A DNA stretch of 5,014 nucleotides, from assembly GCA_947303535.1 (NCBI GenBank), contig CAMYYQ010000137.1:1-5014 (forward strand). The letters run 5' to 3'. The stretch's first letter is position 1; each line of letters begins with the position of its first letter. The position numbers and the translations under genes were made by a program. The stretch is from an uncultured Ruminococcus sp. (GTDB taxonomy: Bacteria > Bacillota_A > Clostridia > Oscillospirales > Ruminococcaceae). Positions 1 to 5,014 of this stretch are shown here, in pieces. The notes beneath the pieces are model-generated. The model saw only the letters and a list, made by a program, of their open reading frames with translations. It ran no database searches and was not told the DNA's origin.

Positions 1-743
1 GTGCCTGTGATGCAAGAAGCTTTACAATTCTGGACAAGGTATTCCTCAGTGAACCTGTGGACAGCTACTATAAAACTCGCCGTGAGCACGGTACAGTTGT
101 GACTATGGCTTGTACAAGACCTGCCGAGACTTGTTTCTGCGGTACATTCGGCATAGATGCAGCTGCTCCCGAGGGCGATGCTGCCTGCTACAGCGACGGC
201 GAGAGTATTTTCTTCGAGGCTCACAATGAAAAGGGACAGAAGTTCATCGCCAGTATCTCAGCTCTTCTTGAAGAGGGCGACTCTGCAAAACTTGATGCTG
301 TACGCGATAAGACAAGAGAGATACTCAAAAAGCTTCCTCTTGCTGGACTTTCAACAGAGTCATTCGGCGGAGATAAGCTCATGGAGCATTTCAATTCCGA
401 GAAGTGGGCAGAGCTTTCAGAGAGCTGTCTTGGCTGCGGTACCTGTACATTTGTATGTCCTACCTGCCAGTGCTATGATATCAAGGACTTCAATACAGGT
501 CACGGCATTAAGCGTTTCCGCTGCTGGGACTCATGTATGTATTCAGACTTTACAAAAATGGCACACGGCAACCCGCGTCTTACTCAGCTTGAACGCTTCC
601 GTCAGAGATTTATGCACAAGCTTGTATACTTCCCGTCGAACAATAACGGCGAATTTGGCTGTGTAGGATGCGGAAGATGCCTTTCAAAGTGTCCTATATC
701 AATGAATATAGTCAAGTTAATGAAAGAATTGGAGGTAAAGTGA
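1..743 (+). CDS. 4Fe-4S dicluster electron-transfer protein, AsrA / sulfhydrogenase beta / FlxB-like (5' end outside window)
   Basis: Likely a soluble electron-transfer subunit that relays electrons between the NAD(P)H-oxidising flavoprotein encoded next and other redox partners. The frame is open from base 3 to the TGA at 741-743, giving 246 visible residues. No start is supported inside the window, and relatives are roughly 330-370 residues, so about 80-120 N-terminal residues are probably missing. A family-typical cysteine-rich stretch, ACTRPAETCFC, lies near 108-141. Two CxxCxxCxxxC [4Fe-4S] motifs follow, CLGCGTCTFVC at 426-458 and CVGCGRCLSKC at 660-692. Between them is a WDSC motif and an Arg-rich segment (about 525-625), both typical of AsrA and HydB-type proteins. 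There is no signal peptide in the visible part and no membrane segment. The stop overlaps the next start by one base, implying translational coupling. Seen: the cluster motifs and neighbours. Inferred: the exact partner. An AsrA role in sulfite reduction is unlikely because no AsrC-like sulfite reductase follows. Confidence 0.85.
   Translation, partial: ACDARSFTILDKVFLSEPVDSYYKTRREHGTVVTMACTRPAETCFCGTFGIDAAAPEGDAACYSDGESIFFEAHNEKGQKFIASISALLEEGDSAKLDAVRDKTREILKKLPLAGLSTESFGGDKLMEHFNSEKWAELSESCLGCGTCTFVCPTCQCYDIKDFNTGHGIKRFRCWDSCMYSDFTKMAHGNPRLTQLERFRQRFMHKLVYFPSNNNGEFGCVGCGRCLSKCPISMNIVKLMKELEVK
731..736 (+). promoter_or_regulatory. Ribosome binding site deciding the start at 743
   Basis: GGAGGT lies 6 bases before the ATG at 743, inside the last codons of the preceding gene. 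It selects the ATG at 743 over an in-frame ATG at 668, which lies 75 bases upstream within the second 4Fe-4S motif of the previous gene and has no comparable site. The TGATG junction (stop 741-743, start 743-745) is a classic coupled-translation arrangement. Confidence 0.85.
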
Positions 744-1570
744 TGAATAAAGATACATTGATACCTTACGTAGGAGTAGTTACCGATATAAGACAGGATA
801 CTCCTGATGTCAAGACATTCAGAGTCGTTTCACCTGAGGGCGGCAAGGTTTTTGAGCATATGCCCGGACAGTGTGCTATGCTGTCTATCCCCGGTGTAGG
901 TGAGGGTATGTTTTCAATAACATCTTCTCCTACAAATAAGGAGTTTATGGAGTTCAGCATAAAGAAGTGTGGCTGTCTCACAACATGGCTCCATGCAATG
1001 GACGTAGGTCAGCAGATAACTATCCGCGGACCTTACGGAAATCATTTCCCTGTTGAGACAGAGCTCAAGGGCAAGGACCTTCTCTTTATCGCAGGCGGTA
1101 TCGGACTTGCTCCTCTTCGTTCTGTTATAAACTATGTGCGTGATAAGCGTGAGGATTACGGGTCGGTGCAAATAGTTTACGGTTCACGTTCAAAAGATGA
1201 CCTTGTTGATTATAAGGAAATAATAGACGAATGGATGGCTGATGACGGCATTGAGGTCAACCTTACCATTGATAATCCTCAGGAGGGCTGGGACGGCCAT
1301 GTAGGATTTGTTCCTAACTATGTAAAGGAGCTTGATCCTTCCATAAACAAAACAGTCCTTATCTGCGGACCTCCGATAATGATAAAGTTTACACTTGCAG
1401 GACTTAAAGAGCTCGGATTTACCGATACACAGGTCTATACAACTATGGAATTGAAGATGAAGTGCGCTGTCGGCAAATGCGGACGCTGCAATATCGGTGA
1501 TAAGTATGTCTGCAAGGACGGACCTGTTTTCCGTTTCGACCAGCTTGACGAGCTGCCTGATGAATATTAA
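743..1570 (+). CDS. FAD/NAD(P)H-binding reductase subunit with [2Fe-2S] site (AsrB / sulfhydrogenase gamma / FlxA-like)
   Basis: Predicted to oxidise NADH or NADPH at FAD and pass electrons to Fe-S partners in the cytoplasm. The protein has 275 residues from the ATG at 743, the usual length for this ferredoxin-NADP reductase-fold family. Residues 1-100 form the FAD-binding barrel. The flavin motif appears as GMFSITSSP (55-63), where the Arg of the common RxYS motif is absent, as is usual in AsrB and sulfhydrogenase gamma relatives. Residues 110-215 form the NAD(P)-binding domain, with AGGIGLAPLRS at 117-127 and the CGPPIM motif at 208-213. The C-terminal [2Fe-2S] binding site of the dihydroorotate dehydrogenase B type uses C241, C246, C249 and C257. 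The gene overlaps its upstream neighbour by 1 base and lies 15 bases before the next gene. NADH versus NADPH preference cannot be told by eye. Its pairing with a fumarate reductase-like module, instead of a hydrogenase or sulfite reductase, is the unusual point. Confidence 0.9.
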   Translation: MNKDTLIPYVGVVTDIRQDTPDVKTFRVVSPEGGKVFEHMPGQCAMLSIPGVGEGMFSITSSPTNKEFMEFSIKKCGCLTTWLHAMDVGQQITIRGPYGNHFPVETELKGKDLLFIAGGIGLAPLRSVINYVRDKREDYGSVQIVYGSRSKDDLVDYKEIIDEWMADDGIEVNLTIDNPQEGWDGHVGFVPNYVKELDPSINKTVLICGPPIMIKFTLAGLKELGFTDTQVYTTMELKMKCAVGKCGRCNIGDKYVCKDGPVFRFDQLDELPDEY

Positions 1571-1577
1571 GGAGGAG
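1571..1577 (+). promoter_or_regulatory. Ribosome binding site for the Fe-S subunit gene
   Basis: GGAGGAG follows directly on the TAA stop of the upstream gene and ends 8 bases before the ATG at 1586. This spacing favours 1586 over the nearby in-frame ATG at 1595. Confidence 0.85.
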
Positions 1578-1585
1578 AATATCGC

Positions 1586-2269
1586 ATGGAAAATATGTTG
1601 AATGTTTACCTGTTCGGCAAGAAGTATCAGGTGCCCGCAGGTCTTACTATAATGACAGCAATGGAATATGCAGGCTATGACCTCGTAAGAGGCTGCGGCT
1701 GCCGCAACGGCTTCTGCGGTGCCTGTGCAACCATTTACAGAATAAAGGGCGAGATAGAGCTTCACGGATGTCTTGCCTGTCAGACAGAGGTACAGGAAGG
1801 AATGTATGTCGCAACACTTCCTTTCTTCCCGCTTGAAAAGAGAGTATACAATATTGAGGAGATAAAGCCTACTCAGCAGATAATGATGCAGCTTTATCCC
1901 GAGATATACAGCTGTATCGGCTGCAATGCCTGTACAAAAGCCTGTACACAGGAGCTCAACGTTATGCAGTATATCGCATATGCTCAGAGAGGAGAGTACG
2001 ATAAGTGTGCAGAGGAGAGCTTTGACTGCTTAATGTGCGGAGTATGTTCATCACGCTGTCCCGCAGGTATTTCCCACCCACAGGTAGCTATGCTGGCAAG
2101 AAGACTCAACGGCAAGTATATAGCACCTGAGTGCGGACATCTCTCTGACCGTGTAAAAGAAGTAAATGATGGTATCTTTGACAAGCAGATCGAGGAGCTT
2201 ATGACTAAGGCTGTCGATAATATCGAAGAGATCAAGGATATGTACAATCACCGCGAGATTGAGAAGTAA
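1586..2269 (+). CDS. Fumarate reductase/succinate dehydrogenase-like iron-sulfur subunit (2Fe-2S plus two 4Fe-4S motifs)
   Basis: The probable electron wire between the NAD(P)H-oxidising flavoprotein and the fumarate reductase-like flavoprotein encoded immediately downstream. The protein has 227 residues, near the FrdB/SdhB size of about 240. Residues 1-85 form a plant-ferredoxin-like [2Fe-2S] domain with C39-x4-C44-x2-C47-x14-C62; C37 and C65 are extra cysteines nearby. Residues 105-165 form an alpha-helical ferredoxin domain with two full motifs, C110-x2-C113-x2-C116-x3-C120 and C148-x2-C151-x2-C154-x3-C158 followed by Pro. In classical FrdB/SdhB the second motif lacks the second Cys and holds a [3Fe-4S] cluster. 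Here Cys151 is present, so a [4Fe-4S] cluster is predicted. The C-terminal 60 residues are charged and probably helical, with no CCG domain as in the TfrB subunit of thiol:fumarate reductase. It lies 12 bases before the flavoprotein gene. The family call is strong; the exact electron path is inferred. Confidence 0.9.
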   Translation: MENMLNVYLFGKKYQVPAGLTIMTAMEYAGYDLVRGCGCRNGFCGACATIYRIKGEIELHGCLACQTEVQEGMYVATLPFFPLEKRVYNIEEIKPTQQIMMQLYPEIYSCIGCNACTKACTQELNVMQYIAYAQRGEYDKCAEESFDCLMCGVCSSRCPAGISHPQVAMLARRLNGKYIAPECGHLSDRVKEVNDGIFDKQIEELMTKAVDNIEEIKDMYNHREIEK

Positions 2270-2276
2270 GGGGGGA
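2270..2276 (+). promoter_or_regulatory. G-rich ribosome binding site for the flavoprotein gene
   Basis: GGGGGGA starts right after the TAA at 2267-2269 and ends 5 bases before the ATG at 2282. It is an all-G variant of the usual GGAGG core but is well placed, and it supports the start that includes the long N-terminal extension. Confidence 0.7.
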
Positions 2277-2281
2277 TAACC

Positions 2282-3883
2282 ATGTATAAAATAGAAAAGC
2301 TTAATGAACTTGCAAAGGTAGTTGCTGCAAAGAGAGCTGAAAATGCTGCTATCGAACCAAGAAGAATGACAGCTGAGGAGAAAGATGATCTTCTTGCACA
2401 TTTCCACCCTGACTACAAGCAGGACGAATTCACTGTTCTTTCCGCAGGTGTGAACAAAGGCGATAAAGTGCCTACTCAGCTTGCTGCTCTTTTACAGGGC
2501 AAAAGTCGTATAAGTGCAGCAGATGTTGATCTTTCTTCACCTGATTATGATACAGACGTACTCATAATCGGCGGCGGCGGTGCAGGTGCTTCCGCAGCTA
2601 TAGAGGCTGACGAAGCAGGTGTAAAGGCAATGATCGTTACAAAGCTTCGTATCGGTGATGCAAATACAATGATGGCAGAGGGTGGTATCCAGGCTGCTGA
2701 CAAGCCCAACGATTCTCCTGCGATACACTTCCTTGATGCTTTCGGCGGCGGACATTTTGCTGCAAAGCCCGAGCTTGTAAAGAAACTCGTTACAAAGGCT
2801 CCTGAGGCTATTCAGTGGCTCAATAAGCTGGGCGTAGAATTCGATAAAGAGCCTGACGGCACTATGGTAACTACTCACGGCGGAGGTACTTCAAGAAAGA
2901 GAATGCACGCTGCAAAGGATTACTCAGGTGCTGAGATAATGCGTACTCTCCGTGATGAGGTCATCAACAGAGGTATACCGGTTATCGACTTTACAGCAGC
3001 TGTTGAGATAATCCTTGATGATAAGGGAAGAGCAGCAGGTGCAGTTCTTATGAACATGGAGACAAAGGAACTACTTGTTGCAAGAGCAAAGACAGTTATC
3101 ATCGCAACAGGCGGTGCGGGACGACTGCACTATCAGGGATTCCCTACATCAAACCACTACGGTGCAACTGCTGACGGACTTATCCTCGGATATCGTGTTG
3201 GTGCTAAGCTCCTTTATGCCGATACACTTCAGTATCACCCGACAGGAACAGGCTATCCAGAGCAGATATTCGGTGCGCTGGTAACGGAGAAGGTTCGTTC
3301 ACTTGGTGCAAAGCTTGTCAATATAGACGGTGATGTATTCATGCATCCACTTGAGACCCGTGATGTTACCGCAGCATCTATCATTCGTGAGTGTACTGAG
3401 CGCGGAAAGGGTATCGAGACTACTTTAGGCAAGTCTATATGGCTCGATACACCAATGATAGAGTATATCCACGGTGAGGGAACTATTGAGAAGCGTATAC
3501 CTGCAATGATGAGAATGTTCGGTAAGTACGGCATTGATATCCGCAAGGAGCCTATTCTCGTTTATCCTACTCTCCACTATCAGAACGGCGGACTTGATAT
3601 CACTGATGACTGCGCTACAGGTGTTGAGAATCTATATGCAGCAGGTGAGGTAGCAGGCGGTATCCACGGAAGAAACAGACTCATGGGCAACTCGCTCCTT
3701 GATGTTATCGTATTCGGCAGAAATGCAGGTATCTATGCAGCTGCCAAAGCCAAGGAAACAACAGCTTCTGATAAGCTCACTCTTGAGCATATCGAGAAAT
3801 TCAACAAGGAGCTTGCAGAGTCAGGTGCAGCAAGCAATGTAGCTTCACCTATGCTTCTCCCCAAATACGCAAGAAAGAAATAA
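2282..3883 (+). CDS. Fumarate reductase/succinate dehydrogenase-like flavoprotein, soluble type with N-terminal extension
   Basis: Predicted FAD enzyme interconverting fumarate and succinate, probably reducing fumarate in this anaerobic context. It has 533 residues. Residues 1-90 are a charged, mostly helical extension absent from E. coli FrdA/SdhA. The Rossmann FAD motif IIGGGGAGA is at 95-103, with E133-G134-G135 nearby. Active-site residues known from E. coli FrdA can be matched by eye: H319 in HPTG (His232), E336 (Glu245), R360 (Arg287, the proton-donating Arg), H432 in HYxxGG (His355) and R466 in NRLMGNS (Arg390). The covalent-FAD His44 position is N128, so FAD should be bound non-covalently. 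The protein ends only about 50 residues after the NSLLDVIVFGR motif (470-480), so the usual C-terminal helical domain is largely missing. No Tat signal or cytochrome domain is present, so it is cytoplasmic. L-aspartate oxidase shares many of these residues, but the adjacent Fe-S subunit argues for fumarate reductase. Substrate direction is inferred. Confidence 0.9.
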   Translation: MYKIEKLNELAKVVAAKRAENAAIEPRRMTAEEKDDLLAHFHPDYKQDEFTVLSAGVNKGDKVPTQLAALLQGKSRISAADVDLSSPDYDTDVLIIGGGGAGASAAIEADEAGVKAMIVTKLRIGDANTMMAEGGIQAADKPNDSPAIHFLDAFGGGHFAAKPELVKKLVTKAPEAIQWLNKLGVEFDKEPDGTMVTTHGGGTSRKRMHAAKDYSGAEIMRTLRDEVINRGIPVIDFTAAVEIILDDKGRAAGAVLMNMETKELLVARAKTVIIATGGAGRLHYQGFPTSNHYGATADGLILGYRVGAKLLYADTLQYHPTGTGYPEQIFGALVTEKVRSLGAKLVNIDGDVFMHPLETRDVTAASIIRECTERGKGIETTLGKSIWLDTPMIEYIHGEGTIEKRIPAMMRMFGKYGIDIRKEPILVYPTLHYQNGGLDITDDCATGVENLYAAGEVAGGIHGRNRLMGNSLLDVIVFGRNAGIYAAAKAKETTASDKLTLEHIEKFNKELAESGAASNVASPMLLPKYARKK

Positions 3884-3887
3884 AAAA

Positions 3888-3913
3888 TATGGGACGCTGT
3901 AAAGCGTCCCATA
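3888..3913. terminator. Perfect 11-bp hairpin with GTAA loop at the operon's 3' end
   Basis: Arms at 3888-3898 and 3903-3913 are perfect inverted repeats (TATGGGACGCT and its complement) around a four-base GTAA loop, a GNRA-type tetraloop in the plus-strand RNA. It begins 5 bases after the stop codon of the flavoprotein. The T-rich tract needed for intrinsic termination lies on the minus-strand side: the complement of 3871-3887 gives six T then T/C-rich sequence. The plus-strand side is A-rich and lacks a U run. It is therefore a textbook terminator only for minus-strand transcripts. On the plus strand it may act as a weak terminator, an mRNA 3'-end stabiliser or a partial barrier before the transporter gene. 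Confidence 0.75.
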
Positions 3914-3950: not shown

Positions 3951-5014
3951 ATGGATTTTTTTAATGGAATTCTTTCGATACACGATGTTTCGTTCCTGAT
4001 GCTGTCTGTTATCGCCATTGCAGCACTTGGATATATTCTCGGAAGAATAACGATCAAGGGTGTTTCACTTGGTACAGCAGGTGTTTTCATAGTAGCTCTT
4101 GTATATGGCTGCACGTTCTATAAAGAGCTTTCTGCTGAAATAAATGTCGATTTCGTAGGTAAAGCCCTGAAAATAGTTGATAACCTCGGACTTATTCTCT
4201 TTGTTACGGCAGTCGGATTTATCGCAGGACCCAATTTCTTCGGAAACTTCAAGAAGAACTTCAAGTCATACGTTCTTCTTGCGATAATCATTATACTCAG
4301 CGGCGGACTTGCCTGTGCAGGTTGTATTGCCGTAGGCAAGAACTTTACAGAGCTTTCATCGGAAGAGTTTACAGCAATGCTGACAGGTATTCTTTCAGGT
4401 GCGCTTACAAGTACTCCCGGTTTCTCAGCAGCAAAGGACGCAGTTGGTTCAGATCATCTCCAGAGCATCGTATCAGTTGGATATGCTATTGCTTATATCT
4501 TTGGAGTTATCGGCGTTGTACTCTTTGTTCAGATCATTCCTAAGCTTACAAAGGCTGATATGGCTAAGGAAAGAGAGCTGCTTGCACCTTCTTCAAAGAA
4601 GAATGATAAAGGTAAGAAAATGTTCACTCCGATCGAAATGGACAGCTTCGGTATCATGCCTTTTGCACTTGCAGCTTGTTTAGGTATCATTATCGGTTCT
4701 TTCAAGTTCGGTAATTTCTCGCTTTCCACAACAGGCGGATGTCTTTTAGTATCGCTTATATTCGGACACTTCGGACGTATAGGCAAGTTTTCCATTATGC
4801 CTAAGGATTCTACACTCAAGGTTTTCCGTGAGCTTGGACTTATGTTCTTCCTTATCGGCGCAGGAGTTGCAGGCGGAGCAAAGTTCGTTCAGTATTTTGA
4901 TGCCGTATACTTCCTCTACGGAATGATAATGACCATACTTCCTATGATAATAGGCTATCTGTTTGCAAAGTATGTTCTGAAGCTCAGTCTTCTCAACAAC
5001 CTCGGCTCTATAAC
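3951..5014 (+). CDS. AAE-family membrane transporter (aspartate:alanine exchanger / YidE-YbjL duplication), possible succinate exporter; 3' end outside window
   Basis: An inner-membrane carrier; 354 complete codons are visible with no stop. Two related halves can be seen. In the first, a hydrophobic segment LGYILGRITIKGVSLGTAGV (26-45) is followed by LGLILFVTAVGFIAGPNFF (79-97) and the signature GALTSTPGFSAA (150-161). The second half repeats this order with LGIIIGSFKFGNFSLSTTGG (244-263) and LGLMFFLIGAGVAGGAKFV (295-313). The window ends at LGSI, where the second TSTP signature would be expected. About 10 membrane segments are recognisable. The linker between halves (about 197-232) is short and Lys-rich, whereas AspT- and SucE-type members carry a large cytoplasmic region with TrkA-C domains there. 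The ATG at 3951 is chosen because an in-frame TGA lies at 3942-3944 and the protein begins just before the first membrane helix. No strong ribosome site is seen. Family members exchange aspartate/alanine or export succinate. Substrate here is inferred from the neighbouring fumarate reductase-like genes. Confidence 0.85.
   Translation, partial: MDFFNGILSIHDVSFLMLSVIAIAALGYILGRITIKGVSLGTAGVFIVALVYGCTFYKELSAEINVDFVGKALKIVDNLGLILFVTAVGFIAGPNFFGNFKKNFKSYVLLAIIIILSGGLACAGCIAVGKNFTELSSEEFTAMLTGILSGALTSTPGFSAAKDAVGSDHLQSIVSVGYAIAYIFGVIGVVLFVQIIPKLTKADMAKERELLAPSSKKNDKGKKMFTPIEMDSFGIMPFALAACLGIIIGSFKFGNFSLSTTGGCLLVSLIFGHFGRIGKFSIMPKDSTLKVFRELGLMFFLIGAGVAGGAKFVQYFDAVYFLYGMIMTILPMIIGYLFAKYVLKLSLLNNLGSI

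What the first reader, a model, noticed from the sequence alone, without database searches (positions are those of the whole stretch)
1..3883. Hybrid operon: sulfhydrogenase/AsrAB/Flx-type NAD(P)H module fused by gene order to a fumarate reductase-like module with no membrane anchor
Seen: four tightly spaced genes (1-base overlap, then 15- and 12-base gaps) encode a 4Fe-4S dicluster protein, an FAD/NAD(P)H reductase, an FrdB-like Fe-S protein and an FrdA-like flavoprotein. Known: the first two types normally serve NiFe sulfhydrogenases, anaerobic sulfite reductase or Flx-Hdr complexes, while FrdAB normally works with quinone-reactive membrane subunits. Inference: this is a soluble NAD(P)H:fumarate oxidoreductase that lets an anaerobe reoxidise NAD(P)H with fumarate without quinones. 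It differs from the methanogen thiol:fumarate reductase, which uses a CCG-domain subunit.
Basis: partly seen in the sequence, partly recalled or inferred. Interest (0 to 1): 0.75.

Follow-up and report, generated by a model that had tools for sequence, protein, structure and literature searches.

The report
Probable bifurcating NADH-fumarate reductase operon
This stretch is the downstream end of a rumen bacterium's succinate-making operon, probably a soluble enzyme complex that uses NADH to reduce fumarate and, by splitting electron pairs, also charges ferredoxin; the same gene layout was proposed before in another bacterium, but the reaction is not proven here.

Summary
The four genes are real, correctly described and conserved, but the window shows only the end of the operon. 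It is Ruminococcus flavefaciens-type DNA (92.8% to strain YAD2003); its own genome is not held. In relatives five further redox genes precede gene 1: hdrB, hdrC, hdrA, mvhD (flxD) and a flxC-like gene. All nine stand in the same order in 109 of 133 loci; in 23 of the other 24 the sequence ends within 230 bases of the first gene found; one (Tindallia) has all nine rearranged. In Ruminococcus fumC leads the operon and an AspT-type carrier gene follows.

Best reading: a FlxABCD-HdrABC module joined to a quinone-free FrdAB, so that NADH electrons are split between fumarate and ferredoxin, with Rnf using the ferredoxin. The same layout was proposed for Pseudoclostridium thermosuccinogenes (PMC7282089, citing a 2019 preprint). 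So: a new member of a proposed kind for which I saw no biochemical proof. Added here: R. flavefaciens, the spread in a class sample, a candidate Rex site, and the close link between this HdrA and the fumarate reductase.

The parts
1..743 (+). Gene 1, FlxB-like / sulfhydrogenase-beta and AsrA-like 4Fe-4S dicluster protein; 5' end lies outside the window (full length 339 aa in L001)
   Evidence: Fer4_22 6.9e-31; ShyB 144.5 bits against a cut-off of 690; solved relative 9nez_B 3e-32
743..1570 (+). Gene 2, FlxA-like FAD/NAD(P)H reductase with a 2Fe-2S domain (start at the ATG of TGATG)
   Evidence: PF00970, PF00175, PF10418; solved relative 9nez_C 1.4e-55; most homologues begin near residue 26-29 of the longer ORF
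1586..2269 (+). Gene 3, short FrdB-like protein: 2Fe-2S (C39, C44, C47, C65) and two CxxCxxCxxxCP motifs (C110-C120, C148-C158)
   Evidence: these cysteines invariant in 58 aligned sequences
2282..3883 (+). Gene 4, FrdA-like flavoprotein with a conserved N-terminal extension (about residues 1-88) and no PF02910 match; Asn128 at the covalent-FAD position
   Evidence: PF00890 1.2e-71; active-site residues invariant in 56 sequences; model pLDDT 81.8, best PDB match 1kf6
3888..3913 (+). Stem-loop between gene 4 and the AspT gene (11 pairs, 4-base loop, -19.8 kcal/mol for the 67-base gap)
   Evidence: folds at -8 kcal/mol or lower in 77 of 78 Ruminococcus gaps examined; no shuffle control was made
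3951..5014 (+). AspT/YidE-type permease, cut by the window end; possible succinate exporter
   Evidence: PF06826; present after gene 4 in 79 of 80 Ruminococcus loci, contig end in the other

Best explanation
The window is the end of an operon fumC-hdrB-hdrC-hdrA-flxD(mvhD)-flxC-flxB-flxA-frdB-frdA-aspT. NADH is oxidised by FlxA (gene 2). Electrons pass through FlxB (gene 1), FlxC and FlxD to the FAD of HdrA, where they bifurcate: one goes to ferredoxin, the other through HdrC and the two CCG sites of HdrB to the 2Fe-2S and 4Fe-4S clusters of gene 3 and the FAD of gene 4, which reduces fumarate to succinate. FumC supplies fumarate, the AspT-type carrier exports succinate, Rnf turns reduced ferredoxin into an ion gradient, and Rex may tie expression to NADH/NAD+. 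Shown here: gene content, order, conservation, domains, active-site residues, and that the anchor and menaquinone families tested were not found. Inferred: that they form one complex, the electron route, bifurcation, fumarate as substrate, NADH rather than NADPH, transport and regulation; and that the window's own upstream DNA is like that of its relatives.
For: All nine redox genes in the same order in 109 of 133 loci, the rest cut by sequence ends except one rearranged set. HdrA full-length against 5odc HdrA, 3.3e-210. In 391 genomes of the class gene 3 is in 54 and this HdrA in 57, 53 shared. HdrB scores higher to SdhE, partner of a fumarate reductase, than to HdrB (147.6 against 134.3 bits), and its ten CCG cysteines are invariant in 11 copies. 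Fumarate-site residues invariant in 56 gene-4 sequences. Gene 3 has a fourth cysteine where E. coli FrdB has its 3Fe-4S motif. PF01127 and PF13085 0 of 6 genomes; PF03116 6 of 6 with a full rnfCDGEAB set in L171. Bifurcation is exergonic, -33 to -53 kJ/mol (ferredoxin potential recalled). Same layout in P. thermosuccinogenes.
Against: No biochemistry is known to me for the reaction. PMC8092306 (passage) says high transcription of fumarate reductase genes was not observed for the ruminococci in sheep. PMC7174568 (passage): R. flavefaciens succinate falls when a methanogen removes hydrogen, which a plain NADH sink explains as well. The gene-3 model was too poor to use and no complex was modelled. 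The stem-loop before aspT may separate that gene.
Confidence: 0.72

Rival explanations
1. One reading: genes 1-4 alone form a soluble, non-bifurcating NAD(P)H:fumarate oxidoreductase, and the upstream Hdr genes act separately.
For: Genes 1-4 are contiguous in 80 of 80 loci and could pass electrons without HdrA; the plain reaction is more exergonic (-68 kJ/mol).
Against: hdrB-hdrC-hdrA-mvhD-flxC are linked in every locus long enough to show it, even in the rearranged Tindallia set where frdAB touches hdrB and not flxA; HdrA and gene 3 occur together in 53 genomes.
Confidence: 0.13
2. Thiol-linked version: Flx-Hdr reduces a small disulfide or protein disulfide, and the thiol is then oxidised by a Tfr-like activity that reduces fumarate.
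For: HdrB keeps both CCG motifs, which in methanogens handle a heterodisulfide; gene 4 scores best to TfrA (346.6 bits).
Against: Gene 3 lacks the CCG part of TfrB; no thiol carrier gene was recognised in the operon of L001.
Confidence: 0.1
3. Gene 4 acts on another substrate (L-aspartate oxidase or another enoate), or the system runs as a succinate oxidase.
For: Some public names for relatives are L-aspartate oxidase, and the active-site residues are largely shared with NadB.
Against: A NadB-like gene lies two genes from NadC in the same genome; gene 4 scores 272.2 to nadB against a cut-off of 452.75 and higher to TfrA and SdhA/FrdA; fumC is adjacent. Asn at the covalent-FAD position does not favour succinate oxidation (recalled).
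Confidence: 0.05

Closest known systems
Pseudoclostridium thermosuccinogenes 'succinate operon' (PMC7282089, passages read; it cites Koendjbiharie and van Kranenburg 2019, 10.20944/preprints201912.0288.v1, not held)
   Same: Fumarase, seven Flx-Hdr genes (counted from the locus tags), two fumarate reductase genes and a hypothetical protein suggested there as a succinate transporter: the same layout as in R. flavefaciens L001.
   Different: The ferredoxin coupling is an assumption there too.
tfrAB with flxABCD-hdrABC in tubeworm symbionts and Thioflavicoccus (PMC6315080, passages read)
   Same: A fumarate reductase interspersed with Flx-Hdr genes, suggested to form one complex.
   Different: Gammaproteobacterial reductive TCA clusters that also hold korABCD; there a TfrB-type subunit is named.
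FlxABCD-HdrABC of Desulfovibrio (Ramos et al. 2015; seen only in reference lists, content recalled)
   Same: The seven Flx-Hdr subunit types.
   Different: No FrdAB in the operon there; other acceptor (recalled).
Methanogen thiol:fumarate reductase TfrAB
   Same: Gene 4 is closest to TfrA among NCBIfam models; gene 3 resembles the N-terminal part of TfrB.
   Different: Below both cut-offs (346.6 of 718; 36.1 of 385); the CCG part is a separate protein, HdrB.
Quinol:fumarate reductase / complex II
   Same: FrdA fold and fumarate-site residues.
   Different: No anchor found, Asn in place of the covalent-FAD His, no 3Fe-4S motif.

Membership tests
FlxABCD-HdrABC | FlxA, FlxB, FlxC, FlxD (MvhD) and HdrA, HdrB, HdrC types encoded together | tested here: met
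   In relatives of the window: 109 of 133 loci in one order, 23 cut by sequence ends, 1 rearranged. In the window itself only part of FlxB and FlxA are visible.
FlxABCD-HdrABC | Full-length HdrA of the bifurcating type | tested here: met
   L001 HdrA residues 3-660 against 5odc, 3.3e-210; below the curated HdrA cut-offs (805.4 of 1100 for HdrA2).
FlxABCD-HdrABC | NADH oxidation coupled to ferredoxin reduction | not testable with these tools
   Needs protein.
P. thermosuccinogenes-type succinate operon | Fumarase, Flx-Hdr, FrdAB and a putative transporter in one cluster | tested here: met
   L001 gene content against the description in PMC7282089; sequences not compared.
Thiol:fumarate reductase (TfrAB) | TfrA and TfrB family scores, CCG domains fused in TfrB | tested here: not met
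   346.6 of 718 and 36.1 of 385 bits; no CCG match in gene 3.
Quinol:fumarate reductase / complex II | Membrane anchor subunit | tested here: not met
   PF01127 0 of 6 genomes, with 7 of 14 control genomes positive; FrdC/FrdD families PF02300 and PF02313 were not searched.
Quinol:fumarate reductase / complex II | Covalent-FAD His and 3Fe-4S motif | tested here: not met
   Asn128 in 56 of 56; CxxCxxCxxxCP in gene 3.
L-aspartate oxidase (NadB) | NadB family score, nad gene context | tested here: not met
   272.2 of 452.75; a separate NadB-like gene, itself just below cut-off (439.5 of 452.75), lies near nadC.
Sulfhydrogenase / anaerobic sulfite reductase | Family scores of genes 1 and 2 | tested here: not met
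   ShyB 144.5 of 690, HydB 118 of 750, AsrA 122.5 of 323, HydG 190.5 of 650, AsrB 194 of 288.6; full-length gene 1 of L001 also below all three.
AspT/SucE-type carrier | Asp-Al_Ex domains; succinate transport | tested here: inconclusive
   Domains found; transport not testable; that a family member (SucE) exports succinate is recalled.

The most novel reading that the evidence does not exclude
Many anaerobes of this class without complex II make succinate by a quinone-free 'fumarate respiration' in the cytosol: HdrB no longer reduces a disulfide but serves as a direct relay from the HdrA bifurcation site into FrdB, so that each succinate yields reduced ferredoxin for Rnf. In this class the Flx-Hdr module is essentially dedicated to fumarate.
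Probability: 0.5. Interest if true: 0.75.

Novelty: new member of a known kind. Interest (0 to 1): 0.52.

Why it matters
R. flavefaciens is a rumen fibre degrader reported to make succinate (PMC7174568 passage). In the six genomes tested no membrane fumarate reductase anchor and no menaquinone marker over cut-off was found, so how the cell profits from that step is open. If the reading is right, succinate formation there yields reduced ferredoxin and, through Rnf, an ion gradient, which would change energy and hydrogen budgets in rumen models and make a proposed bifurcating enzyme testable in a cultured organism. It also gives a likely function to a protein family named 'FAD-dependent oxidoreductase', 'FAD-binding protein' or 'L-aspartate oxidase' in several database records.

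Tried and rejected
Rejected or led nowhere. (1) L-aspartate oxidase: a separate NadB-like gene near NadC. (2) Sulfhydrogenase or AsrAB: family cut-offs not met. (3) Quinone-linked complex II: PF01127, PF13085, PF02621 0 of 6, MenD over the cut-off 0 of 6; the sub-threshold MenD matches (57-82 bits against 244) may be other ThDP enzymes and were not followed up. (4) The AlphaFold model of gene 3 was too poor to use (pLDDT 56.5). (5) NADH against NADPH was not resolved. (6) Print: no paper with the phrase 'bifurcating fumarate reductase'; 'Ruminococcus flavefaciens' with 'heterodisulfide reductase' gave 6 papers, five seen as listing only, one (PMC6776011) by passages on other terms; 'Flx-Hdr', 'fumarate reductase', 'Ruminococc' gave 115 papers with two terms, 20 listed, of which only PMC7282089 showed 'Flx-Hdr', and it names Ruminococcus once, in a reference. 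These cover one open library only. Protein look-ups named some carriers of the gene-4 protein (Petroclostridium, Solibaculum, [Clostridium] leptum, Phocea, Tindallia, Natranaerobius, Anoxynatronum, Acetoanaerobium, Dethiobacter); the operon itself was seen for L160 (100% match to Petroclostridium sp. X23) and L133 (100% match to Tindallia magadiensis). (8) A general search for soluble NADH-dependent fumarate reductases gave nothing on this layout in the 20 rows listed.

Limits of the counts: only three candidates per genome were scored, up to seven. Rows dropped: the 30 short loci L081-L110 were left out of the nine-gene count and replaced by longer fetches of the same genomes (L140-L168; L081 is the genome of L001). 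Sequences 97% or more alike were dropped from the alignment sets. HdrB was aligned from 11 loci because the other copies in the sampled set failed the length filter. Of 80 Ruminococcus loci, 59 had enough sequence before fumC for the Rex scan and 78 a usable gap for the stem-loop.
Full report
Observation. The window holds the 3' part of gene 1 (to 743), gene 2 (743-1570), gene 3 (1586-2269), gene 4 (2282-3883) and the 5' part of an AspT-type permease gene (3951 onward). Domain and family scans agree with its naming. Among the families listed none of genes 1-4 reaches a curated cut-off (sulfhydrogenase, AsrAB, TfrAB, SdhA/FrdA, NadB), so each is a relative, not a member, of those.

Where it comes from. 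The closest fetched locus is R. flavefaciens YAD2003 (L001: 92.8% DNA identity; proteins 96-100%). No whole genome is held for the window, so everything upstream of position 1 is inferred from relatives.

The hidden half. In L001 six genes precede gene 1 on the same strand: class II fumarase (704 bits, over the TIGR00979 cut-off of 664.75), a two-CCG HdrB, HdrC, a 663-aa HdrA, MvhD/FlpD and a second Fe-S dicluster protein. Of the seven junctions from fumC to gene 2, five overlap and two have gaps of 6 and 15 bases. HdrA aligns over residues 3-660 with the solved HdrA 5odc (3.3e-210). HdrB scores higher to SdhE of the 8-methylmenaquinol:fumarate reductase than to HdrB models (147.6 against 134.3 bits), and its ten CCG cysteines are invariant in 11 aligned copies. 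SdhE is itself the CCG partner of an SdhB (recalled), so direct contact of HdrB with gene 3 is plausible.

Conservation. 133 loci were examined: the 80 Ruminococcus loci and 53 loci from the other gene-3-bearing genomes of the class sample. All nine redox genes stand in the same order in 109 (69 of 80; 40 of 53). In 23 of the 24 others the contig or fetched stretch ends within 230 bases of the first gene found. The last, L133 (100% protein match to Tindallia magadiensis), has fumarase alpha and beta, frdB, frdA, hdrB, hdrC, hdrA, mvhD, flxC, then flxB and flxA homologues (34% and 52%) in the adjoining L139: rearranged but together. In 391 genomes of the class (Clostridia, recalled), gene 3 is in 54 and this HdrA in 57 (E up to 1e-100), 53 shared. 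G077 has gene 3 without HdrA; its fetched contig ends in flxC (L149). G038 has HdrA without gene 3; its contig ends in gene 2 (L173). G028 carries a 48% HdrA in another context (L172); G043 and G071 are 43% partial matches. Related genomes are not independent, so the Fisher value (1.5e-59) overstates the case.

Neighbours. fumC is found in 69 of 80 Ruminococcus loci, the other 11 being cut. In the 53 others a fumarase gene was found in the fetched stretch in 19 (class I alpha and beta in 16, class II in 3); flanks differ in length, and in 34 none was found. AspT-type genes are found in 79 of 80 and 33 of 53. In the one genome read further upstream, the gene before fumC is rex (288.1 bits, cut-off 233; L135); rex sequence also shows at the very start of 4 of 80 loci, the others not reaching it. 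Before fumC a Rex-like box, TTGTTAA-N4-ATATCAA, comes within two mismatches of the recalled consensus in 33 of 59 stretches, against 8 of 1180 shuffles; 18 of 59 have four mismatches or more. The 59 are related sequences, so this is a lead.

Catalytic parts. Gene 4 keeps the residues aligned to H233, T245, E246, R288, H356 and R391 of E. coli FrdA (full-length numbering; roles recalled), all invariant in 56 aligned operon sequences; the position of FrdA H45 is Asn128 in all 56. The model (pLDDT 81.8) has E. coli FrdA 1kf6 as its best PDB match by E-value, TM-score 0.68. The R. flavefaciens NadB-like protein shares these residues except a Ser for the Thr, and also has Asn at the FAD position, so residues do not separate the two; family scores, the fumarase neighbour and the separate NadB do. 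Gene 3 has a fourth cysteine where E. coli FrdB has its 3Fe-4S motif, fitting a soluble chain.

Cell context. Six R. flavefaciens genomes were searched: PF01127 0 of 6, PF13085 0 of 6, PF02621 0 of 6, MenD over the cut-off 0 of 6. FrdC and FrdD families were not searched. A second gene-4 homologue (35-37%) occurs in 6 of 6; in the two inspected it lies two genes from a nadC-like gene, and one was scanned as NadB, just below cut-off. PF03116 6 of 6, with a full rnfCDGEAB set in L171. With -320 mV (NADH) and +33 mV (fumarate), both in PMC5861303 passages, and -400 to -500 mV for ferredoxin (recalled), bifurcation gives -53 to -33 kJ/mol.

Mechanism. NADH to FlxA, FlxB, FlxC, FlxD and HdrA-FAD; then one electron to ferredoxin and one through HdrC and HdrB to gene 3, gene 4 and fumarate. 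Everything beyond gene content, order and residues is inference.

Prior work. PMC7282089 (passages) describes the same layout in P. thermosuccinogenes, reports about four-fold induction under CO2 limitation (not significant for all subunits), and assumes ferredoxin coupling, citing a 2019 preprint that I could not read. PMC6315080 (passages) suggests a complex of tfrAB with Flx-Hdr in gammaproteobacteria.

Results against. PMC8092306 (passage): high transcription of fumarate reductase genes, seen in F. succinogenes in sheep, was not observed with the ruminococci; relatives of gene 4 often carry other names, so they may have been overlooked, but that is a guess. PMC7174568 (passage): succinate falls when a methanogen removes hydrogen, which does not separate a bifurcating from a plain NADH sink.

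Verdict. Observation confirmed; interpretation half right; most likely a bifurcating Flx-Hdr-fumarate reductase (0.72).

Noticed in passing
L135 (reverse complement), rex-fumC intergenic of 518 bases; upstream of fumC in the Ruminococcus loci: Conserved Rex-like box TTGTTAA-N4-ATATCAA, within two mismatches of the recalled consensus in 33 of 59 upstream stretches (8 of 1180 shuffles); rex itself is the neighbouring gene in L135.
   Followed up: partly
3888-3913: Strong stem-loop between gene 4 and the AspT gene; the gap folds at -8 kcal/mol or lower in 77 of 78 Ruminococcus loci examined. Terminator, attenuator or processing site unknown.
   Followed up: partly
3951-5014: AspT/YidE-type permease; its place after frdA suggests a succinate or fumarate/succinate carrier.
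   Followed up: partly
window 2282-2545 (gene 4 residues 1-88): Conserved N-terminal extension before the FAD domain, helical in the model, function unknown.
   Followed up: no
L174 (G001:C17): A second, more divergent RnfD/NqrB-like gene (131 bits) with further membrane-protein ORFs beside it; a similar weaker match in 6 of 6 genomes.
   Followed up: no
L172 (G028:C5): A 48% HdrA and MvhD beside ORFs that look by eye like GlcD/GlcF-type oxidase subunits: possibly another HdrA-linked oxidoreductase.
   Followed up: no
L135 (reverse complement), about 5322-9842: Aconitase-like and isocitrate dehydrogenase-like genes (named by eye) lie just before rex and the operon.
   Followed up: no
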